A DNA stretch of 64,000 nt from Phycisphaerae bacterium (GCA_022072445.1 JAJVHV010000001.1:1-64000); one strand, 5' to 3'; counted from the stretch's first letter, positions 7,541-26,974 are shown. Notes: generated from the sequence alone by a model not told the origin. Program-made: numbers and translations.

Positions 7541-8845
7541 CTACGCCAGCCTTCGATTAAGCCGCAGCACACCCAGCGCATAACCGACCGTCCCGACCGC
7601 CAGCAGAATGCCGCACGGCAGCAGCATTTCACCCGCCGAATAGTCGCGCCAGATCGCGCCTTCAAGCGAAATGACCGCCCATTTGACCGGGCTGATGCTG
7701 CTCATCGTCTGCATCCACCCGGGCATCGCGATCAGCGGCACCATCCCGCCGCCCAGCATCGCCATCACCGAGTTCACGCCCCAGCCGATGCCGGAGACGG
7801 CCTGCGGCGACCGGCCGATCGTGCAGAAGAGCATCATCAGGCCGACGAAGCAGAGCGCCGTGCACACCGCGCCGACCACGAACAACGGAAGATTGCTGAC
7901 GCGAACGCCAAAAAACAGGGCGGCGACGATCATCAGCAGCGTGAGCGAGCCGGTGCACGCCAGGAAGCAGGCCGTCGCCTTGCCGGCGAGAATCTGCCAG
8001 CCGACCAGCGGCGACGTCTGGAGTCGCAGCATGGTGCCTTCGATACGCTCGTTGACCAGCGACGTGGCAAAGCCCGCGACGCAGCCGAGCACGCCCCACA
8101 TCATCGCTGAGGGGAATGACACGTCGAACGACGAGCGCGGCTGGGCGCGCACTTCGCGCGCTATGCCCGCCGAGCGAATTGACAGCGGGTTGAATTCAAC
8201 GCCCGCGCTCTTGCTGTCGCCGGCGTCGGAGCCCGTAGCGCCAAACGCCGTCGGCATCGACGTCGCGAAGCTGCGCACCGAACCCAGGAACACGCCGAGA
8301 ATCTGCTTCTGCGCGAACGACAGCTCGGCCGACTGCTCGACCTGCCGCAGCGATTCTTCCGCCTGTTTCTGCATGGCGGCCGGGTCGGCGAAGACGCCCG
8401 ACATCAGCCGGAAGCTCTTCTCCATCAGCAGGCCCTGCAGGAAACCCTCCTCGGCACGCCTTGACGGATCGACGCCGACTTCCAGTTCGGCGCTCTCGCG
8501 GCGAAACAGCCCGAACTTGCCGCCGAATCCAGCCGGTATGGCGACGTAGGCGACGAACCGGCCGCGCCGGACGGCGTCGCGGGCGGCGTCGCGCGACGAC
8601 TCGTGAACCGTCAGTGACTCGGACGTGCGCAGTGCGTCGATCAGTTGGCGCGACGAGGGCGACTTGTCCTCGTCGACGACGGCGACGTCCATCCTTCCGG
8701 CGCCGCCACTGCCCGAGCGCGACGAGAAGATTGACCCGAAAAACAGGGCGTAGATCAGCGGAAATCCAAGAATGAAAAATGCCCCGGCCGGGTCACGCAG
8801 CAGCAGGCGCAGGTCCTTCACGGCGAGCGTCAGAATGGGGCGCAT
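7541..8845 (-). CDS. ABC-2 type exporter permease
   Basis: 434 residues from ATG 8845-8843, sharing one base with the stop of the ATPase gene (TGATG). N-terminal membrane helix 1 follows the cytoplasmic start MRPILTLAVKDLRLLLRDP, typical of ABC-2 permeases of the NatB/YhaP type. A large extracytoplasmic domain (about 40-225) and a helix bundle in the last 190 residues follow (MLFCTIGRSPQAVSGIGW is in this part). It should pair with the ATPase at 8845-9735 to export a drug, lipid or Na+; the substrate is unknown. It ends convergent with the methyltransferase. Confidence 0.88.
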   Translation of the reverse strand: MRPILTLAVKDLRLLLRDPAGAFFILGFPLIYALFFGSIFSSRSGSGGAGRMDVAVVDEDKSPSSRQLIDALRTSESLTVHESSRDAARDAVRRGRFVAYVAIPAGFGGKFGLFRRESAELEVGVDPSRRAEEGFLQGLLMEKSFRLMSGVFADPAAMQKQAEESLRQVEQSAELSFAQKQILGVFLGSVRSFATSMPTAFGATGSDAGDSKSAGVEFNPLSIRSAGIAREVRAQPRSSFDVSFPSAMMWGVLGCVAGFATSLVNERIEGTMLRLQTSPLVGWQILAGKATACFLACTGSLTLLMIVAALFFGVRVSNLPLFVVGAVCTALCFVGLMMLFCTIGRSPQAVSGIGWGVNSVMAMLGGGMVPLIAMPGWMQTMSSISPVKWAVISLEGAIWRDYSAGEMLLPCGILLAVGTVGYALGVLRLNRRLA

Positions 8846-9735
8846 CAGTCTCGCAGGCTCCGGCCGGTCAGGTTCAGGAAGACGTGCTCCAGATCGGGTT
8901 GCTTGACGCGCAGGGACCGCAGGCGGGCGCCGTCGTCGGCGAAGCGCGCCACGTCGTGCAGCGGCTCGTCCGACTCAAGCGTCACAGTCGTGCCTTCGAC
9001 GCGGGCCGCCACGCCACGCAGCGCGGGCACGGGCGGCTCAAACTCGGCCTCGATCAGCGACTTGCCCCCGTAGCGGCGGATGAGATTCTCCACGGTATCG
9101 GTCGCCAGCAGGCGGCCGTGGTCGATGATGGCCACGCGGTCGCAGAGCCGCTCGGCCTCCTCCATGTAGTGCGTCGTGTAGACGATGGTGCGCTGCTGTT
9201 GCTTGAGCGCGGCGATGTTCTCGAAGATGTGGTTGCGCGACTGCGGATCGACCCCCACGGTCGGCTCGTCGAGAAAGATCACCGCCGGATCGTGCACCAG
9301 CGCACACGCCAGATTCAGCCGGCGCTTCATGCCGCCTGAATAGGTCTTTGCGCGGCTGCCAGCCCGCGGTGTCAGGCCGGTGAAGTCCAGCGCAAAGCGT
9401 ACGCGTTCGCGAAGCACCGCTCCGCTCAGCCCGTAGATCGCGCCGAAAAAGTGCGCGTTTTCCGCGCCCGTCAGCTCCTCATAGATGGCCAGCGACTGCG
9501 GCGCCGCGCCGATCCGGCGGCGGGCGGCACGTTCGCTGGGCGGCCCGAGGCCCGCGATGTCCATCCGCCCCTCATCGGGGCGCAGCGCACCGGTCAGCAT
9601 GTGAATCGTCGTCGACTTCCCCGCGCCGTTGGGTCCCAATAGCCCAATCGTCTCGCCGGCCCGCACGTCGATCGACACGTCGTCGACGGCCGTGAGCGAC
9701 CCGAAGCGCTTCCGCAGATTCTCGGCCCGAATCAT
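8845..9735 (-). CDS. ABC exporter ATP-binding protein
   Basis: 296 residues starting MIRAENLRKRFGSL at ATG 9735-9733; a long in-frame extension upstream is shadow sequence. Walker A is GPNGAGKST (about residue 38), the signature is YSGGMKRRLNLA, and Walker B is VIFLDEPTVGVDP with the switch His in YTTHYMEEAE. The C-terminal 70 residues form the regulatory domain common in the DrrA/NatA/CcmA group. It is the first gene of a two-gene operon with the permease and is divergent from the sensor kinase operon across about 270 nt. Confidence 0.93.
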   Translation of the reverse strand: MIRAENLRKRFGSLTAVDDVSIDVRAGETIGLLGPNGAGKSTTIHMLTGALRPDEGRMDIAGLGPPSERAARRRIGAAPQSLAIYEELTGAENAHFFGAIYGLSGAVLRERVRFALDFTGLTPRAGSRAKTYSGGMKRRLNLACALVHDPAVIFLDEPTVGVDPQSRNHIFENIAALKQQQRTIVYTTHYMEEAERLCDRVAIIDHGRLLATDTVENLIRRYGGKSLIEAEFEPPVPALRGVAARVEGTTVTLESDEPLHDVARFADDGARLRSLRVKQPDLEHVFLNLTGRSLRD

Positions 9736-10003
9736 GCCGGCCGACGATACCCGACGGTGCACAGGCGGTGCAATCGTTGCGCCCCGCGTGCGTACCCCAT
9801 CCTCGCGTTGTCGGACGCTCACGCCGCCAGAGTCCTCAAAAATCACTTCGCGGCATGCCGCAGACGGGGCGCGGGATAGCCCGGCAAGATGCGGCGGCCG
9901 CGATTCGATAAGCAATCCGATGCCACGGGCAGATGCCGGCGGCACCACCGAAAACACGGGGGCGCGGTCGGACGACCGCTGCCTGAAATCAGTTTGGACG
10001 AAC

Positions 10004-11905
10004 ATGACCGTTGAGAAGACCGTGACGACCACGAACCCCGGTGCGACCACCACGGTCGCCTCGAGCTCACGCTTCAGCGATTCCCCCGGCGCCATCGCCT
10101 GGTTCGGCCTGGTGACGGTCGCCATCGTGCTGGCCGCCGCGATCGGCGCGTCGTTCGCCTCGCACGCGGTGATCCGGATGCGCGAGGCCGATCGCTCCGC
10201 GCAGTCCGCGCCGGCGCTGATGAACGTGCTCAGCGACGCCGTTCGCGCCCGGCTCGACGCCAGCCAGGTCGAGATTCAGCGCATGCTGGGCGATCTTTCG
10301 CGCGTTCCGGGGGTTGAGGCCTGCCGCCTGACGATCCGCGGCACCGGTGGCGAAGCGACGCACGGCGCCGCGGGGGCGCGCGGAGCAACCGGCCGCTACC
10401 TGCGTGCCGAGTTGGTCGGCGAATCCGGCGGTCGGACCGCGCTGCTGGAGGTCTGGTTTTCGGCGGACGGCGGAGTCTCGGCCATGGCGTCGACGCTCAG
10501 CGCCGGCGGGATGGTGGGTGCGGGCGCGCTGCTGGTGTTCGGGTTGAGCTTTGCCGCCTTCCGCCGAGCCGTGCGGCCGATCACGCTCATCCGGAAGAAT
10601 TTGCTGGACTACCAGCGCGGGCAGGAGACGACGCTCGGTCTGCTCGCGCTGCGCCAGGCTGACAACACCGCGGCCAGCGCCTGGAATGGCCTGCTCAGCT
10701 CGATTGAGGAGATGCAGCGCGAGCTCGACGTGGCCCGCTGCCGGCAGATCGTCTCCGACGTCGCTCGCACGCGGCAACTGTGCTCGTCGCAGGACATCCT
10801 CGACGCGTTGCCCATCGGCGTCGTCGAACTCCGCGGCGAGGCCGAGGTCAGTTACTGGAACTACTCCGCCGGACGGATGCTTGGACTCTCGGCCGAGAGC
10901 GGAAAGGACGGCAAGTCGGGGAGTGTGAGCCTGTCCGATCCCGGCCTGCTTTCCGCGATTGAGCGGCTCCGGGCGGCGTTCGCTCCGGACGGACAGCTCG
11001 CCGGAGACACGCTCAACCACGTGGACCACGAGATTCGCGCCCCGGGCACCGACGGCACGCCGGGCGAGCTGCTTTCGGTCATCCGCCTGACGCCGATTGC
11101 CGGCGGGGAGCAGCGCGGCGACTTCGTGCTGATGGTTCAGGACGTCAGCCAGTTGATCGACGCGGAGCGTTCGCGCGACTCGTTCATCGCGCACATCACG
11201 CACGAGCTGCGCACGCCGCTCACGAACATTCGTGCCTACGCCGAGACGCTGAACGAGGATCTGTTCGACGACGAGAAGACGCGGCGCGAGTGCTACAACG
11301 TGATCATGAGCGAAACGCAGCGCCTGACGCGGCTGGTCGAAGGCGTTCTGAGCGTCTCAGCGATCGAGGCCGGCGCCTCGAAGTTCGAGCGCGCCCCGGT
11401 CAAGCTGGACCACTCGCTGCGGCAGGCCGTTCAGGACGTGCAGGCCAATGCCGACGCGCGCTCGATCGACCTGGCCCTGCGCCTGCCCTCCAAGGTGCCG
11501 CTCGTCATGGGCGATCGGCATCGGCTGCACCAGGTCTGGATCAACCTGCTGGGCAACGCGATCAAGTACACGCCGGCGAAGGGCTCGGTCAGCGTCACGC
11601 TGCAATCCGACGAGCGCGTCGTGCGCGTGTGCGTCTGTGACACCGGGATCGGCATCGCGCCGGAGCACCACCGCAACATTTTCGAGAAGTTCTATCGCGT
11701 CGAGGACCCGACCGTCGAAGGCATCGAGGGAACGGGGCTGGGTCTGGCAATCACGAAAGACATCGTGCGTATGCACGGCGGAACGATCGGCGTAGAGAGT
11801 GAAATGGGCCGCGGTTCGACCTTCTTCGTCGAGCTGCCGCGGGCCCGCGAGTCCGTCGGCGCAGCCGCGGGGGAGGCCGTCCATGGCGCGAATCGTCATC
11901 GCTGA
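10004..11905 (+). CDS. Membrane sensor histidine kinase heading the pseudopilus operon
   Basis: 633 residues from ATG 10004; the frame upstream overlaps the divergent ABC gene and is not protein-like. Membrane helix 1 is about residues 30-52, a periplasmic sensor domain of about 110 residues follows, and helix 2 is near 166-185, then a HAMP-like linker (RAVRPITLI). A PAS-like domain (LDALPIGVVEL, about 265-380) precedes the HisKA dimerisation box FIAHITHELRTPLTN with phospho-acceptor His about 400. The ATPase domain has the N box (INLLGNAIKYTP, about 513-524), G1 (DTGIGIAPEH) and G2 (GTGLGLAI). All catalytic motifs are intact. It overlaps the receiver gene by 23 nt, which makes that receiver the likely partner. 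Confidence 0.92.
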   Translation: MTVEKTVTTTNPGATTTVASSSRFSDSPGAIAWFGLVTVAIVLAAAIGASFASHAVIRMREADRSAQSAPALMNVLSDAVRARLDASQVEIQRMLGDLSRVPGVEACRLTIRGTGGEATHGAAGARGATGRYLRAELVGESGGRTALLEVWFSADGGVSAMASTLSAGGMVGAGALLVFGLSFAAFRRAVRPITLIRKNLLDYQRGQETTLGLLALRQADNTAASAWNGLLSSIEEMQRELDVARCRQIVSDVARTRQLCSSQDILDALPIGVVELRGEAEVSYWNYSAGRMLGLSAESGKDGKSGSVSLSDPGLLSAIERLRAAFAPDGQLAGDTLNHVDHEIRAPGTDGTPGELLSVIRLTPIAGGEQRGDFVLMVQDVSQLIDAERSRDSFIAHITHELRTPLTNIRAYAETLNEDLFDDEKTRRECYNVIMSETQRLTRLVEGVLSVSAIEAGASKFERAPVKLDHSLRQAVQDVQANADARSIDLALRLPSKVPLVMGDRHRLHQVWINLLGNAIKYTPAKGSVSVTLQSDERVVRVCVCDTGIGIAPEHHRNIFEKFYRVEDPTVEGIEGTGLGLAITKDIVRMHGGTIGVESEMGRGSTFFVELPRARESVGAAAGEAVHGANRHR

Positions 11906-12311
11906 AGACCAGGCGCACATCCGCCGCGTCCTCTCCATGTGGCTGACGCGCCACCAGCACGAGGTGATCGAGGCGGGCAACGGCGTGGCGGCGCTCGACG
12001 CGCTGCGCAAGATGCCGGTCGATCTGCTGATCACCGACGTCAACATGCCGGTCATGGATGGGATCGAGCTGACGCGGCGTGCGTTCGAAGCCTGCCCGAC
12101 GTTGCGGGGCGTCTTCGTCGTCACGTCGCGCTGCGACCAGGCCGGCATTCTGGATCAACTGACCGATCCGCGCGTTCGGATCTACCCCAAGCCGTTCAGC
12201 CCGTCGCAACTGCTCCAGGAGGCGCAGGGCGTCCTCGAGCCCGCGGCACGCGACGCGCCCAGCGGCAACGGCCGCGTCGCCGCCGCCGCTTCGGGAGGTC
12301 CTTCGTCGTGA
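11883..12311 (+). CDS. Single-domain response regulator
   Basis: 142 residues from ATG 11883, inside the end of the kinase gene. It is a CheY-like receiver: acidic pair in VIAEDQAH, phospho-acceptor Asp in LLITDVNMP (about residue 54), switch Thr in VFVVTSR, and the conserved Lys in YPKPFSP. After about residue 120 only a short Ala/Gly/Ser-rich tail remains, with no DNA-binding output domain. It must act by protein contact. The next gene encodes an HD-GYP protein without its own receiver, a plausible target. Confidence 0.93.
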   Translation: MARIVIAEDQAHIRRVLSMWLTRHQHEVIEAGNGVAALDALRKMPVDLLITDVNMPVMDGIELTRRAFEACPTLRGVFVVTSRCDQAGILDQLTDPRVRIYPKPFSPSQLLQEAQGVLEPAARDAPSGNGRVAAAASGGPSS

Positions 12312-12325
12312 GGAGACACCGCGAC

Positions 12326-13681
12326 ATGCCGGATAAGTCTGCGCCCGTAGGCAAGGTCCGCCGGCCGTCGCCGCCGGGCCCGGCCGCCATCGCCAGCGAA
12401 TCGGCGGACGTGCCGCCGATGCCGATTCAGCGCGGTCTGAGCGACGCGCTGCGCCGGCTCGACGACCTGGCTCGCGAGAATGAAGCGCTCGGCCGCGAAC
12501 TGCTGCGCTGTTATGAACAGCTCAGCCTGGTGTTTGAGATCACCGAGCACATCGCCGATCTCCGGAACTCCGAGGAAATCGAGCGCACGCTGCTGGAGCG
12601 CTGCGCGACGATGCTCAACTCCCGTGCGCTGTTTCTCGAACTGAATAACGAACTCCGCCCGGTCGTCGCCGAGGCGGGCTGGTGCGATTCGCCGGAGTCG
12701 GTCCCGGAGCGTATTTCCCAGTTGCTCGACGCCGACCTGCAAGCGGTGCGCACCAGCAAGCACGCCGCCACAACCACGCTGCCCCTGGTCGACCCGCCGC
12801 TGCGCGGCTTTGTAGAGGAGCGCGGCGGCCGCGTCGTGGGCGAAGCGGCCAACGCGGCGCAGATTCTGCTGGCGCCGCTGCATCGCTTCGGTGCCCAGAC
12901 CGCCGTCGTCATCGCCGTCCGCAGGCCCAGCGATCCGCCGTTCGACTCCAGCGATCTGCTGGCCGCGGAATCGGTCCTGGGTTACGGCGGGCAGGTGCTG
13001 AGCAACATGCTGATGCTGCAGAACATGCAGACGATGGCGTTCGAGACGGTCTGCGCGCTGGTGCGGGCGATCGATCAGAAGGACCACTACACGTCCGGTC
13101 ACGCCGAACGGGTCGGTTGGCTGGCGCGGATGACCGGCCAGGCGCTGGGACTGGCGGAGCACGACCTCGAAATGCTGGAATGGGCGGGTCTGCTGCACGA
13201 TGTCGGCAAGATCGGGATCAGCGAGGAAATCCTCAACAAGCCCGGACGATTGACGCCCGAGGAGTTCGAGATCATGAAGCGCCACCCGCTCATGAGCTAC
13301 GAAGTTCTCCGCCCGGTCGCCTCGCTGGCACCGATCCTCGAGGGCGTCAAGTATCACCATGAAAACCACGACGGCTCGGGGTACCCGGATGGCCTGAGCG
13401 GCACGGCCATCCCGCTTTTCGCACGGATCATCCACGTGGTGGACATTTTCGACGCGCTCACGTCGACGCGTTCGTACCGCGCCGGCTTCACACTCGAAAA
13501 AGCCTACGCCATCCTCCGCGAAGGCGCCGGCACGGTCACCGATCCGCAGGTGACGCACACGTTTCTCGAAATGATCGACCGCTACCGGCGTGAGAACCAC
13601 GTCGAGTTCACGCGCCGCTTCCGGATACCGACCGCCAGCGATACCGCGCCGCCCGCGCTTGCCGCGGAGGTAAGCCCATGA
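12326..13681 (+). CDS. GAF-like plus HD-GYP protein, predicted c-di-GMP phosphodiesterase
   Basis: 451 residues from ATG 12326; an AGGAG lies about 10 nt upstream. A short coiled coil (LDDLARENEALGREL, about 45-75) leads into a GAF-like domain (about 70-230). The HD-GYP domain follows (about 240-440), with HD at about 291-292 in LLHDVGKIGI, HHENHDGSGYP with GYP at about 352-354, and DIFDALTSTR. All residues expected for the metal site and c-di-GMP hydrolysis are present. The stop overlaps the next start by 4 nt (ATGA). The family opens c-di-GMP to pGpG or GMP. Its place between a receiver and a GGDEF-like gene, upstream of an MshEN-type ATPase, suggests it sets local c-di-GMP for the pseudopilus. 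Confidence 0.93.
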   Translation: MPDKSAPVGKVRRPSPPGPAAIASESADVPPMPIQRGLSDALRRLDDLARENEALGRELLRCYEQLSLVFEITEHIADLRNSEEIERTLLERCATMLNSRALFLELNNELRPVVAEAGWCDSPESVPERISQLLDADLQAVRTSKHAATTTLPLVDPPLRGFVEERGGRVVGEAANAAQILLAPLHRFGAQTAVVIAVRRPSDPPFDSSDLLAAESVLGYGGQVLSNMLMLQNMQTMAFETVCALVRAIDQKDHYTSGHAERVGWLARMTGQALGLAEHDLEMLEWAGLLHDVGKIGISEEILNKPGRLTPEEFEIMKRHPLMSYEVLRPVASLAPILEGVKYHHENHDGSGYPDGLSGTAIPLFARIIHVVDIFDALTSTRSYRAGFTLEKAYAILREGAGTVTDPQVTHTFLEMIDRYRRENHVEFTRRFRIPTASDTAPPALAAEVSP

Positions 13682-15243
13682 CGCCCGCGCCCCCGCAGCT
13701 CTCGACCGCGCTCGAGGCGGCCGGCGGCGAGCGAGCCACCGCGGTTCCGCGTCCCGGCTGGCGGCACGTCGTCGCGCTGGTGATCGTCGTTGCGGGGCTT
13801 TTCGTCTGCTACGGCAGTGTTCTGCGCGAAGGCGCCGACTTCGCCATCCTGCTGGCCGTATGCGGCGCGATGGGTGTCGGAGTCTCCGGTCTGGGTGCCG
13901 CGCTGGGCGCCCGGCTGGGCAGCATCGTCGGCCTGAGCATCTCGATCGGCCTGTGCACGCACTCGCACGCGTCGCTCATGAATCAGATGCTCTTTTCCGC
14001 GATCGCGACGGCCGCGTGCAGCCTGATCGGCTGGTTGGCGGGATCGCGGCCGCCTGGCGGCGACACGGCAACCATGCCCAGCGACGCGCGCCGCCAGGAC
14101 GGAGCCGGCAGCCTCGGCAATGTCACGTCGCTGGCGTCGGCCTTTCAGCGCTGGGTGGCCGAGGGCCGCATCAACTGGCGATCGTTCGATCAGTTCGTCC
14201 GCACCGCGCTGCGCGAGACCTGCACGGCCACGCACGTGCGCAGTTTTCACGTCGGACGCGGGCTCACGATCCGGCCGCTCTCGAACAGCGCGCAAGAGGA
14301 TGCGATTGGACTTTCTGAGTCCGATCGCGAGCTGCTCAGCGCGCTGCTCACGGCCCGCGAACCGATTCACACCGGCCGTGCGCAAATACCCACCGAAAAA
14401 GAGAATGGCCGCGCCCCGCACGACGCCGCCGCGCACGGCGCCGCCGCGGCACCCCGTCTCAGCGACGCTGAGTGGCTGATTCCGGTGTCGGACAACAACG
14501 CCGTCGTCGGCATCGTCGCCATCGGCGCGCTCGGCCGCTCCATACCGGAGGCCGCGCGTCCGGCGCTGGTCGAAGCTCTGGCGCGCACGCTCTCGCTTTG
14601 CTGGGTTTGCGTCCGCGTCCGCCGCCGTCTCTCCGCCGCGCGTGGCATCGATCGGCCGAGCGGCGCGATGACGCGCGAACGCCTCCTGGCCGATTGCGAG
14701 CGCGTGGCGCGCGCCGCCGCCGACGACGGAGAACCGCTCACCGTCGTCATTCTGGGAATCGAGGGAGTGCGGCGTCTTGACGACGAGGGACTGTGGCAGC
14801 AGCGCGACCGGCTCATCGACCGGCTGGGCCGCGTCGTGCGCCGAACGCTCCGCACCGACGATCTTCTGGGCCGCTTCAGCGACGACCGGTTCGTGGTCGT
14901 GCTGCGGCGGGTCGACGCGACGCTGGGCGAGTTGATTTCGCGCAAGCTGCTCGAAGCCGCGCGCGGCGCGGTCGCGGGCCGGCCGCCGGGTGCGGCCCGC
15001 GGCGGCGAGCAGTCCCGGCAGGGCATGATCACCGTTCGAGCCGGCAGCGCGAGCTTCGCGAGCGTGACCTGCGACGCGAGCAGCCTGATCAGCGCGGCGA
15101 TGAGCTGCCTCGACGAGGCGCGTCAGCAGCAACGCGAGCTGGTCTGCCGCCGGGTTGAGCCGGCGCGATTCGTTCCCGTGACCGAGCCAGGCTGCGGGCC
15201 GGGCTGCGCCGAACGTGACGTGCCGATTCCGCATGAGGTGTAG
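13678..15243 (+). CDS. Membrane protein with degenerate GGDEF-like domain
   Basis: 521 residues from ATG 13678, overlapping the HD-GYP stop. Residues about 25-130 contain three or four membrane helices (LVIVVAGLFVCYGSVL is the first). A GAF-like region occupies about 150-315 and a GGDEF-fold region about 325-505 (TVVILGIEGVRRLDD, then TDDLLGRFSDDRFVVVL). The catalytic signature GG(D/E)EF is replaced by SDDRF (about 401-405): both glycines and the catalytic Glu are missing. Diguanylate cyclase activity is therefore unlikely; nucleotide binding or a purely structural role is possible. Fold assignment is by motif position and moderately confident. Confidence 0.75.
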   Translation: MTPAPPQLSTALEAAGGERATAVPRPGWRHVVALVIVVAGLFVCYGSVLREGADFAILLAVCGAMGVGVSGLGAALGARLGSIVGLSISIGLCTHSHASLMNQMLFSAIATAACSLIGWLAGSRPPGGDTATMPSDARRQDGAGSLGNVTSLASAFQRWVAEGRINWRSFDQFVRTALRETCTATHVRSFHVGRGLTIRPLSNSAQEDAIGLSESDRELLSALLTAREPIHTGRAQIPTEKENGRAPHDAAAHGAAAAPRLSDAEWLIPVSDNNAVVGIVAIGALGRSIPEAARPALVEALARTLSLCWVCVRVRRRLSAARGIDRPSGAMTRERLLADCERVARAAADDGEPLTVVILGIEGVRRLDDEGLWQQRDRLIDRLGRVVRRTLRTDDLLGRFSDDRFVVVLRRVDATLGELISRKLLEAARGAVAGRPPGAARGGEQSRQGMITVRAGSASFASVTCDASSLISAAMSCLDEARQQQRELVCRRVEPARFVPVTEPGCGPGCAERDVPIPHEV

Positions 15244-15246
15244 CCC

Positions 15247-15582
15247 GTGAAAGTCGACGTGCAGCAACACGGAAGCGTGACAGTGGTCGCCCCGCGCGGC
15301 CCGTTGACCGAGGCGGACGTGTCATCGGTCGAAGCCGCACTTCAAACCGAGCAGCAGAAGAGCCGCTCGCGGATCGTCGTCGACATGTCGGGCGTGCCGT
15401 ACCTCGACAGCGCCGGCATCGAGCTGCTGCTGCGGTTCGCGGCTTCGGCGCCCAGTCCAGGCATGCGGCCGCGGCTCGCCGCACTGAGCGACACGGTGCG
15501 CGAAGCGCTCGACCTGACCGAGACGCTCAAGCGCTTCTTCCGCTTCGACACGGTGGAAAGCGCCGTGCGCAGCTACATGTGA
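15247..15582 (+). CDS. STAS-domain anti-sigma factor antagonist-like protein
   Basis: 111 residues from GTG 15247, 3 nt after the previous stop. The whole protein is one STAS domain: strand VTVVAPRGPLTEADV, then VDMSGVPYLDSAGIELLL, where the Ser in DSAG is the usual phosphorylation site. SpoIIAA/RsbV-type proteins bind anti-sigma kinases or act as partner-switch scaffolds. No RsbW-type kinase or phosphatase gene is nearby. In this operon it could link the signalling module to the secretion motor, but that is inference. Confidence 0.88.
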   Translation: MKVDVQQHGSVTVVAPRGPLTEADVSSVEAALQTEQQKSRSRIVVDMSGVPYLDSAGIELLLRFAASAPSPGMRPRLAALSDTVREALDLTETLKRFFRFDTVESAVRSYM

Positions 15583-15607
15583 CGCCGTCCCGTCGCCGGA
15601 GAAGGGT

Positions 15608-17383
15608 ATGTTGAAGCGCGGTCAGAAACTCGGCAGCGTGCTCATCGAGCAGGGGTTGATCACCGAGCAGGACCTCGAGCGCGCCCTGCAGGCCCAGAAG
15701 ACCGGGAATCGGCGGCTGGGCGAGACGCTGATCGAGCTGGGCATCGTCACCTCCGACACGCTGGTGAACGCGGTCGGCCGGCAGCTCGGCGTGCGTGGCT
15801 GCACCATCCGCCACGGTCTGGTCGACCCGAAGGCGGTCGCACTGCTTGACGCCGACGAGGCCCGTCGTCTCAAGGTTCTGCCGCTCTTCAAAGTCGAGGA
15901 TCGGCTGACCGCCGCCATGGCTGAGCCGCAGTCGCTGCCGACGATCGACCGGCTGGCGAAGCTCACCGGCTGCAAGATCAACCCGGTGCTCGCGCTGGCC
16001 AGCAACATCGCCGAGTTCCAGGAGAAGTATCGCGGCACGCAGGTCAACGTTCAGTCGTTTCTGACCACGTTGACCGAGAGCAAGGTCGAAGTCGTCGAGA
16101 GCGACACCAGCGCCGACGAGTCATCCGACATCAACCGGCTGGTCGAAGGCAGCCCGATCGTCAACCTGGTCAACCTGGCCATCATGACCGCCATCCGCGA
16201 CAACGCCAGCGACATTCACGTCGAGCCGGAGCGCGGCGGGACGCGCATCCGCTATCGGGTCGACGGCGTGTTACAGGAGCTGATGTCGCCGCCGCACGGC
16301 ATGCACAGCGCGATCGTCTCGCGCATCAAGGTCATTGCCCGCATGGACATCGCCGAACGCCGCCTGCCGCAGGAAGGCCGCGTGCACGTGGTGGCCGAGA
16401 CCCGCAACATCGACCTGCGCATCTCGACGATACCGACGATCCTGGGCGAAAAGGTGGTGCTGCGCATTCTGGACCGTTCGCGCCTCGACGTGAGCCTCGA
16501 GCAGCTCGGACTCGAGGGCGAGCCGCTCGACCGCTTCATGTCCATGCTGCGCAAGCCGCACGGCCTGGTGCTGGTCACCGGCCCGACCGGCAGCGGCAAG
16601 ACCACCACGCTTTACTGCGCCCTCGAGCAGCTTTCCGAGTACGGCCGCAACGTGGTCACGGTCGAAGACCCGGTCGAATACCAGCTCGACGGCGTCAACC
16701 AGATCCAGATCAGCGACGCCATCGGGCTGAGCTTTCCGCGCGCGCTGCGCTCCATCCTGCGCCAGGACCCCGACATCATCCTCGTCGGCGAAATCCGCGA
16801 CCGCGAGACCGCGCAGATCGCCGTTCAGGCCGCCCTCACCGGGCACCTGGTGCTCTCGACGCTGCACACCAACACCAGCCCGGGAGCCGTCGCCCGCCTG
16901 CTCGACATGGGCGTCGAGCCGTACTTGCTGGCTTCGGCATTGAACGGCGTCATCGCGCAGCGGCTCGTCCGCAAGAACTGCCCGCATTGCATCGCTTCCT
17001 ACTACCCGTCGGCCGAGGCCCTGCTCGACGCCGGCCGCCAGGCCGACGCGCGGCGCGTCTATCAGCGCGGCGAGGGGTGCAGCAAGTGCCACGACACGGG
17101 CTTCGCCGGCCGCGTCGGCGTTTACGAAGTCATGCCGCTCGACGACGTCCTCCGGCAGCAGATTCACAACCGCGCCGGCGAGGACGACATCCGCCGTCAC
17201 CTGCTCACGACCAGCTGGCGGCCGCTCCGCGACGAGGGCGTCCGCCTCGCCGATCGCGGGCTCTCGCCGCTGGAGGAAGTGCTGCGCGTCACGCATACCG
17301 AGACCCAGTCACGCGTCCGCGCCGAGGCAGCCGCGGGCACGCCCGCCGCCGCGCGGCCTGAGCGGCAGGAGGTGGCGACGTGA
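15608..17383 (+). CDS. gspE: GspE/PilB-type assembly ATPase with N-terminal MshEN c-di-GMP-binding domain
   Basis: 591 residues from ATG 15608, with GGAG six nt upstream. Residues 7-30 and 36-59 are two 24-residue copies of the MshEN motif: K/R-L-G at the start, Gly at position 10 of each copy, Leu at 17, Gln at 24. They are separated by exactly five residues (KTGNR). This architecture is known to bind c-di-GMP in MshE. The ATPase core has Walker A GPTGSGKTTT (Lys about 331), the Asp box VEDPVEYQ, Walker B IILVGEIRDRETA and the His box HLVLSTLHTN. A zinc tetracysteine site is formed by C458/C461 and C491/C494. It powers pseudopilus or pilus assembly with GspF downstream. The first motif has Lys in place of the usual first Arg. 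Confidence 0.95.
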   Translation: MLKRGQKLGSVLIEQGLITEQDLERALQAQKTGNRRLGETLIELGIVTSDTLVNAVGRQLGVRGCTIRHGLVDPKAVALLDADEARRLKVLPLFKVEDRLTAAMAEPQSLPTIDRLAKLTGCKINPVLALASNIAEFQEKYRGTQVNVQSFLTTLTESKVEVVESDTSADESSDINRLVEGSPIVNLVNLAIMTAIRDNASDIHVEPERGGTRIRYRVDGVLQELMSPPHGMHSAIVSRIKVIARMDIAERRLPQEGRVHVVAETRNIDLRISTIPTILGEKVVLRILDRSRLDVSLEQLGLEGEPLDRFMSMLRKPHGLVLVTGPTGSGKTTTLYCALEQLSEYGRNVVTVEDPVEYQLDGVNQIQISDAIGLSFPRALRSILRQDPDIILVGEIRDRETAQIAVQAALTGHLVLSTLHTNTSPGAVARLLDMGVEPYLLASALNGVIAQRLVRKNCPHCIASYYPSAEALLDAGRQADARRVYQRGEGCSKCHDTGFAGRVGVYEVMPLDDVLRQQIHNRAGEDDIRRHLLTTSWRPLRDEGVRLADRGLSPLEEVLRVTHTETQSRVRAEAAAGTPAAARPERQEVAT

Positions 17384-18609
17384 ACTTCGTCTACAGCGCG
17401 ATGGACGCGCGCGGCCGCAGCGTCTGCGACGAAATCGAGTCGGCCAGCGCGGTCGAGGCGCAGCGCGCCCTGGCCGACCGCGGCCTCTTCATCCTCAGCC
17501 TCAACGAAGCGTCGCCGACGCGGAAGTCTCCGGCTCGCGGCCGGCGTTCGGGCAGGCGGGGCGGCTTCTGGTCCGCCGGCGCGCGCCAGGCCAGCGCGGC
17601 TGGTTTCGCCCGCATGATGAGCATGATGCTCGAGGCCGGTGCTCCGGTCGTCACCGCGATCGAAGCGGCCCTCAAGCAGATTCGCTCCGCTCAATGGCGC
17701 ACCGTGCTGACCGGCGTGCGCGACGACGTGGCCGGCGGAGCGTCGCTCGCTCAGGCCGTGGCGCGCCATCCCGCGCACTTCTCACCCATGGCCTGCTGCA
17801 TCATTGCCGCCGGCGAAACCACGGCAACCCTGACCGAAGCCTTCCGCCGCCTCACCACCATGCTCGAAGCCCGGGCCCGCACGCGCGCCAACATCATCAG
17901 CGCTCTGGCTTATCCCGTGATGCTTATGCTGCTGTCGGTCGGCGTGCTCGTGACGCTGAGCGTCTTCGTCCTGCCGAAATTCGCCGCGCTGTTCGCCTCC
18001 CTTAACGCCAAGTTGCCGACGCTCACCCGCGCGTTGCTCGGCGTCGCCGCGTCCTTTCAGTACTGGATCGCGCCGGTCGGCGGCGGGCTGGCCGCCGGCC
18101 TCACGATGCTGGTGCTTTGGGCGCGTTCGGCCTCGGGCCGGCGAACCATCGGCGAGACCGCCGTCCGTTTACCTGTCCTGGGCCGCGTCATCGCGAATTT
18201 CGAGCTGGCGCGCATCCTGCGCGTCTGGAGCACGATGCTCAAGAGCCGCGTGCCGATGCTCGACGCCATTCAGGAGCTCAACGGCGTGACGAGCAGCCCG
18301 GCGTTCGTCCGTCTGCTGCGGCAGATCGAAGAAGCCGTCACGCAGGGGCGGTTGGCCACGGCCGTCCTCGCCGCCTCGCCACTCATGCCGCCGACCATCG
18401 CCGCGGCGCTTACGACCGGCGAGGAGAGCGGCCGCCTGGCTGAATCGATGGAGTTCGTCGCCGGCTGGATGGAGGAGCAGAATCAGCAGACCATTGCGAC
18501 GATGGCGCGCCTGCTCGAGCCGTTGATCCTCGTTGTTCTCGGACTTGTCATCGGCGCGGTCTGCATCGCGCTGTTTCTGCCCCTTTTCGACATCGCGACG
18601 GCGGCCTGA
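17380..18609 (+). CDS. gspF: GspF/PilC-type inner-membrane platform protein
   Basis: 409 residues from GTG 17380, overlapping the gspE stop (GTGA). The N-terminus NFVYSAMDARGRSVCDEIE is the usual GspF opening. Two homologous T2SSF helical domains follow (about 70-190 and 270-390), each followed by membrane helices; the first repeat contains FARMMSMMLEAGAPV and the second ARILRVWSTMLKSRVPMLD. The last helix is VLGLVIGAVCIALFLPLF. It forms the platform rotated by the ATPase during pseudopilin insertion. Confidence 0.95.
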   Translation: MNFVYSAMDARGRSVCDEIESASAVEAQRALADRGLFILSLNEASPTRKSPARGRRSGRRGGFWSAGARQASAAGFARMMSMMLEAGAPVVTAIEAALKQIRSAQWRTVLTGVRDDVAGGASLAQAVARHPAHFSPMACCIIAAGETTATLTEAFRRLTTMLEARARTRANIISALAYPVMLMLLSVGVLVTLSVFVLPKFAALFASLNAKLPTLTRALLGVAASFQYWIAPVGGGLAAGLTMLVLWARSASGRRTIGETAVRLPVLGRVIANFELARILRVWSTMLKSRVPMLDAIQELNGVTSSPAFVRLLRQIEEAVTQGRLATAVLAASPLMPPTIAAALTTGEESGRLAESMEFVAGWMEEQNQQTIATMARLLEPLILVVLGLVIGAVCIALFLPLFDIATAA

Positions 18610-20350: not shown

Positions 20351-20913
20351 TGTTGCGCCGCGCGCTCGTGACTCCGACCGACCTGCTTGGCGGCACCATC
20401 GTCGCCGGCCTGATGGCCCTGACCGGCGCCGTCCTCGCCGCACCGCTGATCGGCATTTCCGGCGAGTTGGCCGCCGTCGTCCGTGACGTCGGCGAAACCC
20501 ATCGCGATCTGGAACACCTCGCCGCGCAGAACGCTTCCACCCGCACGGCGATCGCGCAGTCCGCCGAGCTCCTGTCGCACGAATATCAGCGCTCGCAGCT
20601 CAACATCGGCCAGTATCTCGCGGAAGTGTCCGAGGCCTGCCGGGCGCGCGGCGTGAACATCGTCGACTTCCAGCCCGTTGAGCGCCCCGCCGATGGTGCC
20701 CACCGCTCGTGGGACATCCACATCACGGCGACCGGCGCGTTTCCGGCGTTCGTCGAGGCACTGGCGGCGATCGAGGTTATCAGCCCGTACGCGGCCCTGC
20801 GCGAGCTGGCCGTCACGGCCACGCCCGATCAACCCAGTCCGACGCGCATCAGTTGGACCATCCGTGTGACGTGGGCTGCCGCGCCCAGCGCGAAAACGGA
20901 GACCAGGCCATGA
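20350..20913 (+). CDS. pilO: PilO-like alignment-complex protein
   Basis: 187 residues from ATG 20350, sharing one base with the previous stop. One membrane helix (about 12-35), a coiled coil (about 36-75) and a ferredoxin-like periplasmic domain (about 85-180) match the PilO/GspM layout. Sequence identity to named members is not obvious by eye, so the call leans on position between PilN-like and PilP-like genes. Confidence 0.78.
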   Translation: MLRRALVTPTDLLGGTIVAGLMALTGAVLAAPLIGISGELAAVVRDVGETHRDLEHLAAQNASTRTAIAQSAELLSHEYQRSQLNIGQYLAEVSEACRARGVNIVDFQPVERPADGAHRSWDIHITATGAFPAFVEALAAIEVISPYAALRELAVTATPDQPSPTRISWTIRVTWAAAPSAKTETRP

Positions 20914-21425
20914 AGCTGACCCGCCGGCAGCGCTGGTGGCTTTGCGGCCTGGTCGTCGCGCTGATCGCGATGGCGATGGACCGCCTGCTGCTGCCGCGCC
21001 CCGCGGCCGCCACCGCCCGCCCGGCGCCATCGCCCACTTCGCGCCCCAGCGCCGCCACACCCAACATCGCCGCGCTAGACGCCGCTATCGCCGAGCTGGG
21101 CCGGGTGCTTTCCGCTGATCCGACCCGCGTTGAGCCCTCGCCGCCCGACGTCTTCGCCCGCACGCGTGCCGCCGCCGCCGTCCTGGCCGACGCGCCGCCG
21201 CCGCAGCCCGCGCCGACCCGCGCCGACGAGTTCGCCGCGCGCTATCGGCTGGCCGCGACCATCACGGGCGCCGCCCCGGCCGCCGTGATCGGACGCCGCG
21301 TTATCCGCATCGGCGAGACTATTGAGACTTTCACGCTCCGGGCCGTCGGCGACGGCTGGGCCGAATTTGTATCAGACGATGGCTCCGTGCGGCTCGAAGT
21401 CCCGCGCCGCACGTCGCAAAACTGA
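20910..21425 (+). CDS. PilP/GspC-like single-pass protein
   Basis: 171 residues from ATG 20910, overlapping the previous stop (ATGA). A basic start (MKLTRRQRW) and one membrane helix (about 10-27) are followed by a long Ala/Pro linker and a small C-terminal beta domain (YRLAATITGAAPAAVIGRR, then VRLEVPRR). That small beta domain after a disordered linker is the layout of PilP and of the HR domain of GspC, which contact the secretin. No secretin gene is in the window, so its partner is elsewhere. Confidence 0.65.
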   Translation: MKLTRRQRWWLCGLVVALIAMAMDRLLLPRPAAATARPAPSPTSRPSAATPNIAALDAAIAELGRVLSADPTRVEPSPPDVFARTRAAAAVLADAPPPQPAPTRADEFAARYRLAATITGAAPAAVIGRRVIRIGETIETFTLRAVGDGWAEFVSDDGSVRLEVPRRTSQN

Positions 21426-21525: not shown

Positions 21526-22059
21526 ATGACGGTTTCTCGGACGCGACATCGCAGTGGCTTTACGCTGGTCGAAATGATCATCGTTGTGGTGATCGTCGGC
21601 ATCCTGGCCGCGATCGCCATCCCGCGGCTCAGCCGCGGCGCATCGGGTGCGAGCGACTCCGGCGTCCGCGGCAACCTGGCCGTGCTCCGGAACGCGATCG
21701 AACTCTACTACTACGAGCACGGCGAGTATCCCGGAAAGAACGGCGACGGCACGAACGCCGCCGGCACCCAGGCGGCGCTCGTCGCGCAGTTGACGAAGTA
21801 CACTGACGCCGACGGCGTCGTGAGCGACACGCGCACGGACGTGTACCGCTATGGTCCGTATCTGCGCAAGGGCGTACCGCCCTGCCCGGTCTCGCCGCGG
21901 CTCGGCAAGAATGGCGTGGAGATGGTCACGGGTGCGACGGTGCCGGCGTACACGGCGTCGGCCGCGGATGCGGGCTGGGTCTATAACAGCGACACGGGCG
22001 ACATCTGTGTGAATTCGAGCGAGACCGACTCCGACAGCGTGCAGTACGACGCATACTAA
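21526..22059 (+). CDS. gspG: Major pseudopilin, GspG-type
   Basis: 177 residues from ATG 21526 with GGAG upstream. The prepilin leader ends HRSG and the mature chain starts FTLVEMIIVVVIVGILAAIA, with Glu at +5 intact. The globular part has the GspG-type segment IELYYYEHGEYPGK and ends GWVYNSDTGDICVN, the place where GspG proteins bind calcium. It is preceded by a 100-nt spacer, the longest gap in the operon, and followed by a terminator-like hairpin. Both fit separate, high-level expression of the major subunit. Confidence 0.92.
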   Translation: MTVSRTRHRSGFTLVEMIIVVVIVGILAAIAIPRLSRGASGASDSGVRGNLAVLRNAIELYYYEHGEYPGKNGDGTNAAGTQAALVAQLTKYTDADGVVSDTRTDVYRYGPYLRKGVPPCPVSPRLGKNGVEMVTGATVPAYTASAADAGWVYNSDTGDICVNSSETDSDSVQYDAY

Positions 22060-22152: not shown

Positions 22153-22764
22153 GTGATCGCTTTTCGGTCAGCTCGGCAAAACGCGCGACGCCGCAGCCAT
22201 CAGCGGCGAGCATTCTCGTTGTTCGAGATGGTCGTCGCCGTCATGATTATCGGCATTCTGTCGTCGATCGCGATTCCGCGCTTGTCGCGCGGCGGCTACG
22301 ACGCCAACGCCGCCGCCATGCGCCAGAATCTCGCCATTCTGAGCAGTGCCATGGAGCTGTACTCGGTCGAGCATGCCGGCCGGTATCCGGCGGCGCGCGG
22401 CGACGGGGTGTTTCCGGCGCACACGGAGGGGGCGTTTCTGGCGCAACTGACGCAGTACTCGGACGTGGGCGGTGCGACCGCCGCGGCGCGCAGCTCGGCC
22501 AAGCGATTCGGACCCTATCTGCTCAACGGTGTTCCGCCGCTGACGGTTGGCGACAAGGCGGGGAGCGACGAGGTGAAAGTGGTGACCGGCGCGACGCCGG
22601 TGGCTTACGACGGCGCGAGCCCGGCGGGGTGGGTCTACAGCGACGTGAGCGGCGAGATCATTCCGAACATCCCGAACGGCCAGGACAACGCGGTAATTCA
22701 GCAGGACGCCATCAGCGCGGACTGGGCCAACGGCAAGGGTGTCGGAAAGCTGGTGAGCCAGTGA
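22153..22764 (+). CDS. Second GspG-like pseudopilin
   Basis: 203 residues from GTG 22153, with GAGG seven nt upstream. The prepilin segment is RRAFSLFEMVVAVMIIGILS; Glu +5 is present, but the residue before the cut is Ala, not Gly. The rest parallels the first pseudopilin (MELYSVEHAGRYP, FGPYLLNGVPP, GWVYSDVSGEI), so the two arose by duplication. It lies downstream of the hairpin and overlaps the next gene by 4 nt (GTGA). Confidence 0.88.
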   Translation: MIAFRSARQNARRRSHQRRAFSLFEMVVAVMIIGILSSIAIPRLSRGGYDANAAAMRQNLAILSSAMELYSVEHAGRYPAARGDGVFPAHTEGAFLAQLTQYSDVGGATAAARSSAKRFGPYLLNGVPPLTVGDKAGSDEVKVVTGATPVAYDGASPAGWVYSDVSGEIIPNIPNGQDNAVIQQDAISADWANGKGVGKLVSQ

Positions 22765-23315
22765 GCCGCATTGACGAGCGGCGTGGGAGCGAGGTCGGGC
22801 GCGCCGCGCGGGCGCGGCGCGGGCGTTGTCGCCAGCACTGGACCAAGCGGGCGGGGTTCACGCTGTTCGAGCTGATCGTGGTGGTCGTGGTGGTGGCGAT
22901 TATCAGTGCGTTGGCGCTGCCGCAGTTCGGCGGCGCGTCGGACCGGCAGCGCACGGCGGGCGCGGCGCAGCGCGTCGCCGCCGACATTGCGCTGGCGGCG
23001 CGACACGCGCGCGTGACCGGCACCACTGTCAGCGTCGTGTTCTCGGGCGGCGGCTCGTACAAGATTCCGGGCCTGCCGCACCTCGACCGCTCGGCGGCCG
23101 AGTATGCCGTGTCGCTTTCGGCCGAGCCGCATGTCGTCACGTTCAAGACGGTCGACTTCGGCGGCGACACGACGCTGAAATTCGACGGATACGGCTCGCC
23201 CGACAGCGGCGGGCTGCTGGTGCTGGCGGCGGGCAACAGCGTTCACTCGGTGACGGTTGACGCGTCGAGCGGGGTGGCGACGGTGGTGGAAGGTCTGGTG
23301 GCGCTGGAGAAGTGA
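22761..23315 (+). CDS. Minor pseudopilin, GspH-like
   Basis: 184 residues from GTG 22761. A long basic leader (about 33 residues, Arg-rich) precedes G|FTLFELIVVVVVVAIISALA with Glu +5. The C-terminal beta-rich domain (VVFSGGGSYKIPGL, KFDGYGSPDSGG) resembles GspH/FimT minor pseudopilins. The next start follows directly after its stop. Confidence 0.82.
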   Translation: MSRIDERRGSEVGRAARARRGRCRQHWTKRAGFTLFELIVVVVVVAIISALALPQFGGASDRQRTAGAAQRVAADIALAARHARVTGTTVSVVFSGGGSYKIPGLPHLDRSAAEYAVSLSAEPHVVTFKTVDFGGDTTLKFDGYGSPDSGGLLVLAAGNSVHSVTVDASSGVATVVEGLVALEK

Positions 23316-24383
23316 ATGCGGGCGGCGGAACGGGCCAACGGCTTCACGCTAATCGAGGTGGTGCTGAGCGTCGCGGCCAGCACGATCCTGGTCGGCGCGC
23401 TGCTCTCGGCGATGGTGCTGGTGAGCCGGGCGGTGCCGGCGACGCGCCCGGAGCAGGAGGAGATGGTGCGGGCGGCCGAGTTGGTCGAACAGATGTGCGC
23501 CGAGCTGCAAACGGCCGACGCGATCATCGACCGCCAGTCGGCGTCGATCGAGTTCACCGTGCCCGATCGCGACGCCGACGGCACGTCGGAGCGAATTCGC
23601 TACGCCTGGTCGGGCGTGGCGGGCGAACCTCTGCTGCGCCGCTTCAACGGCGTGGCCGACGCGGTGGCGCTGGAGCGGGTGAAGTCGCTGGCGCTGTCGT
23701 TCAGCACGTCCACCGCGCAGTCGACGAGCAAGGGCAACGCTGTCGCCAGTGCCGAGTCGCTGCTGTTCGGCCACAACTCGAGCAGCAATCTGGCCGACGC
23801 GTCCATCACCAGCACCGACTGGGTCGCCGAGTCTTTCACGCCCGTGCTGCCCGGAGACGCGACGAGCTGGTCGGTGAAGAAAGTTCGGCTGCGGCTGCGC
23901 CGTGTCCCGCCTCACGAGGGAAGTTTTCGCGTGCAGTTGCGCACGCTGAACAACGGAGACTTTCCGAGTGACACAGTTCTGGAAGAGGTGATCGTCGCAG
24001 AGTCGGCGCTGGGAGCTTCCTACGCGTGGTATACGGTCTCATTTGCGACCGTGACCGGTCTGGCGCCGGGGACGGGGCTGAGTCTCGTCATCGCACACCA
24101 GAGCGGGGTAGCGGCCTGCGACGTCGAGTATTGCAGTCAGAACACCTACACCGCTTTCGGAAAATTCGCGACGACGCCGGTCTACGCGACGACCTGGATC
24201 GTCAGCCACGACGCCGCCCTGAACTGTGAAGTGTGGGGGCAGGTGTGGACGGCCCCGGCCAGCGCCGTCGACGTCTATTACCTGAACGAGGTGCGCGTGG
24301 CGCTGACGCCCGTTGGCACCAACGCCAGCAGCATCAGCAGCGGCGTGCGGCTGCTGAACCTGCCCACGGTGAGCGGACCATGA
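23316..24383 (+). CDS. Minor pseudopilin, GspJ-like, with an extra beta-sandwich insert
   Basis: 355 residues from ATG 23316. The prepilin segment is ANG|FTLIEVVLSVAAS with Glu +5. GspJ proteins are near 200 residues; here an extra domain of about 140 residues (about 169-310) is inserted before the last strands (VDVYYLNEVRVALTP). The insert (AESFTP, VRLRLRRVPPHEGSFRV, NGDFPSDTVLEE) resembles the choice-of-anchor beta-sandwich domain found on secreted planctomycete proteins. It contains the only cysteines of the extracellular part apart from one at about residue 50. Confidence 0.78.
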   Translation: MRAAERANGFTLIEVVLSVAASTILVGALLSAMVLVSRAVPATRPEQEEMVRAAELVEQMCAELQTADAIIDRQSASIEFTVPDRDADGTSERIRYAWSGVAGEPLLRRFNGVADAVALERVKSLALSFSTSTAQSTSKGNAVASAESLLFGHNSSSNLADASITSTDWVAESFTPVLPGDATSWSVKKVRLRLRRVPPHEGSFRVQLRTLNNGDFPSDTVLEEVIVAESALGASYAWYTVSFATVTGLAPGTGLSLVIAHQSGVAACDVEYCSQNTYTAFGKFATTPVYATTWIVSHDAALNCEVWGQVWTAPASAVDVYYLNEVRVALTPVGTNASSISSGVRLLNLPTVSGP

Positions 24384-24937
24384 CGACCGCCCGCCGCGTT
24401 CGATTCGGCTTCAGCCTGGTGGAGACCGTGATTTCGGCGCTCATCGTGGGCGTTGCGCTGGTTGCGGCGCTCAACACGCTGGGCGGAGTCGAGGCGGCCC
24501 GCGTGCGCAGCGTCGACCGAGTTCGCGCCGGGTTGCTGGCCGACGGGTTGATCGCCGAGATTTGCGGTCAGGCGTATGAGGAGTCCGGCACCACGACGCT
24601 GGTTCTCGGACCGGAAGCGGGCGAGAAGATCGGCACGAGCCGCGCGGCGTTCGACGACGTGGACGATTACAACGGCCTGAACGACAAGCCGCCCTGCGGG
24701 CGCGACGGCAGCGCCATGGGTGATTATTCCGGCTGGCGGATTCAAGCGGCGGCGGCGTGGGTCAATCCCGTGTCGCTGAATAACTCGCTGACGGAAACGG
24801 GCTACAAGCTCATCACGGTGACCGTCACCACGCCGGCCGGCGAGAGCGTCAGCCGGCTGACGTTGAGCGCCAAGGGGGCGTCTGGGCTTATCAAGATTGA
24901 CCTGGGTGGCGGGAAGCTTGTCATCAGCGCGCTGTGA
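24380..24937 (+). CDS. Minor pseudopilin, GspI/PulI-like
   Basis: 185 residues from ATG 24380, overlapping the previous stop (ATGA). The prepilin segment is RFG|FSLVETVISALIVGVALV with Glu +5. The rest is a short helix and beta domain (LADGLIAEICGQAYEES). The order after the GspH- and GspJ-like genes and before a GspK-like gene supports the minor pseudopilin call; assignment to GspI over GspV/PilV is by position. Confidence 0.8.
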   Translation: MTTARRVRFGFSLVETVISALIVGVALVAALNTLGGVEAARVRSVDRVRAGLLADGLIAEICGQAYEESGTTTLVLGPEAGEKIGTSRAAFDDVDDYNGLNDKPPCGRDGSAMGDYSGWRIQAAAAWVNPVSLNNSLTETGYKLITVTVTTPAGESVSRLTLSAKGASGLIKIDLGGGKLVISAL

Positions 24938-24954
24938 GCGGCAGAGGAAACTGG

Positions 24955-26193: not shown

Positions 26194-26232
26194 TCCACGT
26201 ATGTGGCACAGACGCCCCCGGCTGTGTGCCGG

Positions 26233-26922: not shown

Positions 26923-26974
26923 TTCGGAGGGCGCCGTCGGCGAGTTCGGAGGGCGCCGTCGGCGAGTTCGGAGG
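26910..26974. repeat. Three tandem 22-bp repeats
   Basis: Unit CGCCGTCGGCGAGTTCGGAG plus GG at 26910-26931 and 26932-26953, with a third copy one base shorter at 26954-26974. The array interrupts the 69-bp series. Confidence 0.88.

What the first reader, a model, noticed from the sequence alone, without database searches (positions are those of the whole stretch)
12326..17383. Pseudopilus operon carries both c-di-GMP turnover genes and an MshEN-type c-di-GMP-reading ATPase
GspE (15608-17383) opens with two 24-residue MshEN motifs, residues 7-30 and 36-59, spaced by exactly five residues. In MshE this arrangement binds c-di-GMP. The same polycistronic run holds an intact HD-GYP protein and a GGDEF-like membrane protein, both fed by a sensor kinase and a lone receiver. 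Genes overlap or touch from 10004 to 17383, so kinase, receiver, phosphodiesterase and motor would be made together. A self-contained signal-to-secretion circuit in one operon seems little described, though parts may be known in other Planctomycetota.
Basis: partly seen in the sequence, partly recalled or inferred. Interest (0 to 1): 0.78.

Follow-up and report, generated by a model that had tools for sequence, protein, structure and literature searches.

The report
c-di-GMP control cassette beside pilus motor
In one group of Planctomycetota, the genes for a surface-filament motor that probably reads the messenger c-di-GMP sit in a long-conserved row with a sensor kinase, a receiver, an enzyme that probably destroys that messenger, a dead relative of the enzyme that makes it and a small STAS protein, which suggests the motor carries its own on-site control circuit.

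Summary
GspE residues 7-30 and 36-59 match the curated MshE-type c-di-GMP-motif model (63.9 bits, cut-off 38), and the predicted fold matches c-di-GMP-bound MshE best. The upstream run, kinase–receiver–HD-GYP–GGDEF-like–STAS–GspE, is complete in 31 of 40 loci fetched from relatives; a profile of the GGDEF-like protein finds it in 77 of 114 genomes of the order. HD-GYP catalytic residues are essentially invariant in 38 sequences. Three corrections. (1) The GGDEF-like protein is not a turnover enzyme: the catalytic Glu is missing in all 40 sequences that cover it (Arg in 37) while the RxxD site is largely kept, so a reader role is likelier. (2) Each MshEN domain binds one c-di-GMP, not two. Parts are known; the conserved combination was not found described in the searched literature. 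Best reading: a local two-component/c-di-GMP checkpoint on a type IV-filament motor. New variant of a known kind, interest about 0.5. No binding or activity was shown.

The parts
10004..11905 (+). sensor histidine kinase (two membrane helices, PAS-like, HisKA, HATPase)
   Evidence: Pfam HisKA/HATPase_c; PhoR/PnpS-like; two hydrophobic helices; orthologs in 38 loci
11883..12311 (+). lone receiver domain
   Evidence: PF00072 62 bits; phospho-acceptor Asp conserved in the orthologs
12326..13681 (+). HD-GYP protein, probable c-di-GMP phosphodiesterase, weak N-terminal GAF-like match
   Evidence: PF13487 141 bits; all listed metal/signature residues invariant in 38 sequences except D/N at one HHExxDG position
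13678..15243 (+). membrane protein with degenerate GGDEF domain (SDDRF), RxxD site kept (RTDD)
   Evidence: PF00990 34 bits; residue counts in 41 sequences; GGDEF fold in model
15247..15582 (+). STAS domain protein
   Evidence: PF01740 60 bits; Asp-Ser pair in 36 of 36
15608..17383 (+). GspE/PilB-type motor ATPase with N-terminal MshEN domain (residues 1-145)
   Evidence: T2SSE 454 bits; NF053729 63.9 bits at residues 7-59; model matches 5htl best
15626..15784 (+). codons of the 53-residue c-di-GMP motif pair, GspE residues 7-59
17380..18609 (+). GspF/PilC platform protein
   Evidence: PF00482
18612..19685 (+). PilM-like protein
   Evidence: PF11104
19682..20350 (+). PilN-like protein
   Evidence: PF05137
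20347..20913 (+). PilO/GspM-like protein
   Evidence: PF10741 just below cut-off; position in the run
20910..21425 (+). small protein at the PilP/GspC position
   Evidence: position only; no family match
21526..22059 (+). GspG-like major pilin
   Evidence: N_methyl, GspG profile below cut-off
22153..22764 (+). second GspG-like pilin
   Evidence: FSLFEMVVAVMIIGILSSIAIPRL leader
22863..23315 (+). GspH-like minor pilin (true start slightly upstream)
   Evidence: PF12019
23316..26193 (+). three further genes, minor-pilin type or so placed (23316-24383, 24380-24937, 24934-26193)
   Evidence: N_methyl matches just below cut-off in the first two; the third by position and leader-like N-terminus only

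Best explanation
A conserved signalling cassette sits directly upstream of, and is probably made together with, a type IV-filament motor in Phycisphaerae. Proposed working: an envelope signal acts on the membrane kinase; the kinase phosphorylates the lone receiver; the receiver switches the HD-GYP phosphodiesterase (a split version of RpfG-type REC-HD-GYP proteins); this sets c-di-GMP near the motor; the MshEN domain of the ATPase binds one c-di-GMP and thereby permits filament assembly, while the membrane-anchored dead GGDEF protein acts as a second reader or anchor and the STAS protein as a phospho-switch on the motor. Shown here by computation: gene order and its conservation, intact HD-GYP motifs, dead GGDEF with largely kept RxxD site, complete MshEN motif pair and fold. 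Inferred: every arrow between the proteins, the direction of the effect, and all ligand binding.
For: Order HK-REC-HDGYP-GGD-STAS-GspE found complete in 31 of 40 fetched loci, with GGDEF-like identities down to about 25-35%; the GGDEF-like profile hits 77 of 114 genomes of the order. HD-GYP motif residues essentially invariant. MshEN motif pair scored by a curated model; best fold matches are 5htl (MshE with c-di-GMP) and c-di-GMP-bound PilF GSPII-B. Lys at motif I position 1, as here, is found in the tighter binders PilF GSPII-B, Dg-PilB2 and Ct-PilB. Six other GGDEF domains in the genome keep GG(D/E)EF, so a c-di-GMP source exists. ATPase tree: all STAS-linked ATPases lie apart from the genome's other MshEN ATPases; the loci with the full cassette form one group (99/91). 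Near-zero gaps between genes, no promoter-like match in the run.
Against: Motif II's final Gln, which hydrogen-bonds c-di-GMP in MshE, is kept in this genome but replaced by Arg, His or Lys in 23 of 37 sequences of the order, so binding may not be the conserved function everywhere. HK-STAS-ATPase without receiver, HD-GYP or GGDEF exists in about a dozen loci of other orders, and the two such ATPases tested still score as c-di-GMP-motif proteins, so the HD-GYP is not needed for the system in general. Family f2 keeps the GGDEF-like gene but lacks the HD-GYP. No expression, binding or activity data. The promoter scan covers only the sigma-70 consensus.
Confidence: 0.58

Rival explanations
1. Scaffold model: HD-GYP and dead GGDEF act on the motor mainly by protein contacts, as reported for RpfG with GGDEF and PilZ proteins acting on PilT/PilU in Xanthomonas, and phosphodiesterase chemistry is secondary.
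For: Precedent in which GGDEF cyclase activity is not needed (PMC3749722); GGDEF catalytic Glu lost in all 40 sequences and replaced by a conserved Arg in 37; best-scoring solved relative in one profile search is the degenerate GGDEF of FimX, a PilB regulator.
Against: HD-GYP motif residues are strictly conserved, which a pure scaffold would not need. The DxD motif reported as the GGDEF-side interface in Xanthomonas is absent here (first Asp in 0 of 41). FimX is not the top hit with the second profile.
Confidence: 0.2
2. The functional core is kinase plus STAS acting on the ATPase; c-di-GMP is an old extra layer that some lineages dropped, and the GspE MshEN domain serves mostly as a structural or docking domain.
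For: STAS next to the ATPase is kept where HD-GYP and GGDEF genes are gone; STAS Asp-Ser pair 36 of 36; motif II Gln drifts.
Against: The window's own motif pair is complete, and Lys or Arg at motif II position 1 is kept in all 37 order members.
Confidence: 0.17
3. Plain co-expression: the genes share an operon but the HD-GYP serves the whole-cell c-di-GMP pool and there is no local circuit.
For: The genome has five other HD-GYP matches and six intact GGDEF domains; local pools cannot be inferred from sequence.
Against: Fixed gene order across families at low identity, and no such genes at the three other MshEN ATPase loci.
Confidence: 0.05

Closest known systems
MshE / MshEN domain of Vibrio cholerae (PMC5013675, PMC4624772)
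   Same: Two 24-residue motifs with 5-residue spacer at the N-terminus of a filament motor ATPase; predicted fold matches best
   Different: Lys instead of Arg at motif I position 1; motor gene lies in one run with kinase, receiver, HD-GYP, dead GGDEF and STAS genes
PilF GSPII-B of Thermus, PilB2 of Deinococcus geothermalis, PilB of Chloracidobacterium (PMC11731258)
   Same: Lys at motif I position 1, reported with nanomolar binding
   Different: PilF carries three GSPII domains; here one domain
RpfC/RpfG two-component HD-GYP system acting on PilT/PilU through GGDEF and PilZ proteins (PMC3749722)
   Same: Kinase, receiver, HD-GYP and GGDEF protein linked to a pilus motor
   Different: Receiver and HD-GYP are separate genes; no PilZ gene recognised in the run; DxD interface motif absent; the motor itself carries the c-di-GMP motif
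PelD (PMC7112168)
   Same: Membrane helices, GAF-like region and degenerate GGDEF with RxxD, next to the machine it would control
   Different: Not found among solved relatives by sequence; controls a polysaccharide synthase, not a motor
FimX
   Same: Degenerate GGDEF protein tied to PilB-type ATPase control (PMC11656802)
   Different: FimX also has PAS and EAL domains; this protein has no EAL match and is membrane-anchored

Membership tests
MshEN c-di-GMP receptor domain | tandem 24-residue motifs with 5-residue spacer | tested here: met
   NF053729 63.9 bits vs cut-off 38, residues 7-59
MshEN c-di-GMP receptor domain | key positions R/K, L, G, G, L, L, Q in both motifs | tested here: met
   7 of 7 in both motifs, counting Lys7 and Val56 as allowed (Lys supported)
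MshEN c-di-GMP receptor domain | binds c-di-GMP | not testable with these tools
   needs ITC or DRaCALA
HD-GYP c-di-GMP phosphodiesterase | HDxGK and HHExxDGxGYP plus further metal ligands | tested here: met
   present and invariant in 38 sequences apart from D/N at one position
HD-GYP c-di-GMP phosphodiesterase | hydrolyses c-di-GMP | not testable with these tools
   no assay
Diguanylate cyclase (GGDEF) | GG(D/E)EF with catalytic Glu and first metal Asp | tested here: not met
   SDDRF; Glu in 0 of 40, first Asp in 0 of 41
I-site c-di-GMP receptor with degenerate GGDEF (PelD-like) | RxxD five residues before the GGDEF position | tested here: met
   RTDD here; R in 36 of 41, D in 39 of 41
PelD family | sequence relation to PelD | tested here: inconclusive
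   PelD not listed among matches; the paper notes that a PelD homolog was missed by sequence methods
Type IV-A pilus PilB | TIGR02538 equivalog cut-off | tested here: not met
   579 vs 676 bits
Type II secretion GspE | TIGR02533 equivalog cut-off | tested here: not met
   572 vs 630 bits
RpfG-type REC-HD-GYP response regulator | REC fused to HD-GYP | tested here: not met
   separate adjacent genes 11883-12311 and 12326-13681
RpfG-GGDEF contact | DxD motif in the GGDEF partner | tested here: not met
   position 360 is A/V/S/G/C/E/T/N, never D

The most novel reading that the evidence does not exclude
A dedicated two-reader checkpoint on a filament motor: two c-di-GMP readers (MshEN on the motor and a membrane-anchored dead GGDEF with a conserved Arg replacing the catalytic Glu), one phosphodiesterase under its own two-component control, and a STAS phospho-switch, inherited as a unit since early in Phycisphaerae evolution, with a kinase-STAS-motor core that works even without c-di-GMP genes beside it. 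The STAS protein as a direct partner of a type IV-filament ATPase would be a new kind of motor control.
Probability: 0.3. Interest if true: 0.72.

Novelty: new variant of a known kind. Interest (0 to 1): 0.52.

Why it matters
How a cell directs c-di-GMP to one machine out of many is an open question. A cassette that places kinase, receiver, phosphodiesterase, dead GGDEF, STAS and a motor with a c-di-GMP motif in one conserved gene run offers a compact, testable case. Lineages that lack different pieces (no HD-GYP; neither HD-GYP nor GGDEF; added PilT) give a natural series for testing which part does what. It also points to STAS proteins as overlooked neighbours of filament motors.

Tried and rejected
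A reading that other orders lost c-di-GMP binding because motif II starts with Leu or Met was dropped: PilF GSPII-B binds tightly with Leu at that position. The GGDEF protein as a cyclase was rejected. A special tie to PelD by fold was not obtained: the model returns generic GGDEF domains and PelD is not listed; this does not exclude it. FimX as closest relative holds with one profile but not with the other, so no membership is claimed. A first collection search with the broad alignment failed for lack of conserved stretches; a narrower one gave named Phycisphaerae records. Paper searches for Planctomycetota with c-di-GMP and pili, HD-GYP with type II secretion, Phycisphaerae with type IV pili, and the STAS/HD-GYP/pseudopilus combination turned up no description in titles and abstracts listed; most subscription papers and preprints are not covered. 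Sigma-70 promoter scan found nothing, which says little for this phylum.

Full report
Observation. The ORF 15608-17383 encodes a 591-residue motor ATPase (T2SSE 454 bits). Pfam's MshEN model covers residues 67-145, the C-terminal subdomain. Motif I starts with Lys; work on PilF GSPII-B reports that Lys there favours binding and is shared with two other tight binders (PMC11731258). The predicted structure of residues 1-154 (mean pLDDT 83.5) matches MshE with c-di-GMP (5htl) best, then c-di-GMP-bound PilF GSPII-B. In the crystal structure the two motifs together hold one c-di-GMP, each half a molecule (PMC5013675), so 'two c-di-GMP' per domain is not expected.

The gene run. Gaps are -23, 14, -4, 3 and 25 bases, and the run continues closely through GspF, PilM, PilN and PilO-like genes and, with gaps near 100 bases in part, about six pilin-type genes to about 26193. 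No secretin is in the run; four above-cut-off secretin matches lie elsewhere in the genome.

Conservation. Searching relatives with the GGDEF-like protein and mapping neighbours, 31 of 40 fetched loci hold kinase, receiver, HD-GYP, GGDEF-like, STAS and GspE in this order and orientation, in several families of the order, with identities of the GGDEF-like protein to the window's near 25-35%. Several of the rest are cut by contig ends; two (family f2) lack the HD-GYP, and three are a second, partial copy without STAS and GspE (L073-L075). A profile finds the GGDEF-like protein in 77 of 114 genomes of the order, while a draw of 294 genomes over the phylum gives, apart from this genome, only far weaker matches, which I take to be ordinary GGDEF domains. 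Named records from the public collection are Phycisphaerae or Planctomycetota metagenome genomes.

Wider history. ATPases mostly 50-59% identical occur in other orders of the class; there the neighbours are mostly kinase-STAS-ATPase-GspF-PilM without receiver, HD-GYP or GGDEF matches between them (L105-L116, L118; L130, L131; in a few of these loci the kinase or STAS match is missing or the contig ends). A more distant ATPase group (44-46% identical) has kinase-receiver-HD-GYP-STAS-ATPase, in two of three followed by a second ATPase (L120, L124), which in L120 passes the PilT-family cut-off. In a tree of 58 ATPases, all STAS-linked ones separate from the three other MshEN ATPases of this genome, the full-cassette loci form one group (99/91, with the two f2 rows inside it) and the kinase-STAS-ATPase loci another (100/99). 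Since the deepest branch has receiver and HD-GYP, loss in the other orders is a reasonable reading, but the root is by midpoint only. Outside the class, one locus with receiver-kinase-STAS-ATPase was found (L129). Within this genome none of the three other MshEN ATPase loci has kinase, receiver, HD-GYP, GGDEF or STAS matches nearby.

What the signalling parts can do. In the HD-GYP protein every listed metal and signature residue is invariant in 38 sequences, except D/N at one position: a probable active phosphodiesterase. In the GGDEF-like protein the catalytic Glu is absent from all 40 sequences that cover it (Arg in 37), the first metal Asp is absent from all 41, yet RxxD is kept (Arg 36, Asp 39 of 41). 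So it is not a cyclase; a c-di-GMP-reading role like that shown for PelD through RxxD (PMC7112168) is likelier. Four hydrophobic helices precede a weakly GAF-like region. The STAS protein keeps the Asp-Ser pair in 36 of 36; that the Ser is the phospho-acceptor is from general knowledge of SpoIIAA-type proteins. Six other GGDEF domains with intact GG(D/E)EF exist in the genome, so c-di-GMP has a source outside the run.

Mechanism and doubts. The best-supported account is a local checkpoint: kinase to receiver to HD-GYP, setting c-di-GMP near the motor, read by MshEN and probably by the dead GGDEF protein, with STAS as a further switch. All links between proteins are inferred. The main doubt is that the Gln closing motif II is present in only 14 of 37 sequences of the order, this genome included, the rest having Arg, His or Lys; in the engineered PilF GSPII-A domain, Gln at both positions was among the changes needed for measurable binding (PMC12002112). 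A scaffold account after the Xanthomonas RpfG-GGDEF-PilZ-PilT example (PMC3749722) is the main rival, but the DxD motif named there as the GGDEF-side contact is missing.

Known or new. Each part has close known relatives; MshEN in motor ATPases is widespread (PMC5013675). I found no description of this conserved combination, or of STAS as a filament-motor neighbour, in the searched open literature. I rate it a new variant of a known kind.

Noticed in passing
26229-26912: Tandem array of about ten 69-base units, in frame within ORF 26201-27043 just after the pilin genes; neighbouring shorter arrays at 26907-26974 and 27144-27232.
   Followed up: no
23316-24383: Minor-pilin-type protein of 355 residues, unusually long, with no family match beyond the leader.
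   Followed up: no
L073, L074, L075: Second partial copies of the cassette in three genomes: HD-GYP and GGDEF-like genes (with kinase in two) next to a GspG-like pilin but without STAS and GspE.
   Followed up: partly
L117 10619-12058: In another order (G117) a divergent GGDEF-like gene precedes STAS-ATPase, with receiver and HD-GYP on the opposite strand upstream of the kinase.
   Followed up: partly
L126 (G000:C17:8000-27500): Separate locus of the same genome with a MshEN ATPase and a second, shorter ATPase about 2 kb downstream, possibly a conventional PilB/PilT pair.
   Followed up: no
7541-10125 minus strand: ABC-2 type exporter (permease and ATPase) divergent from the kinase gene.
   Followed up: no
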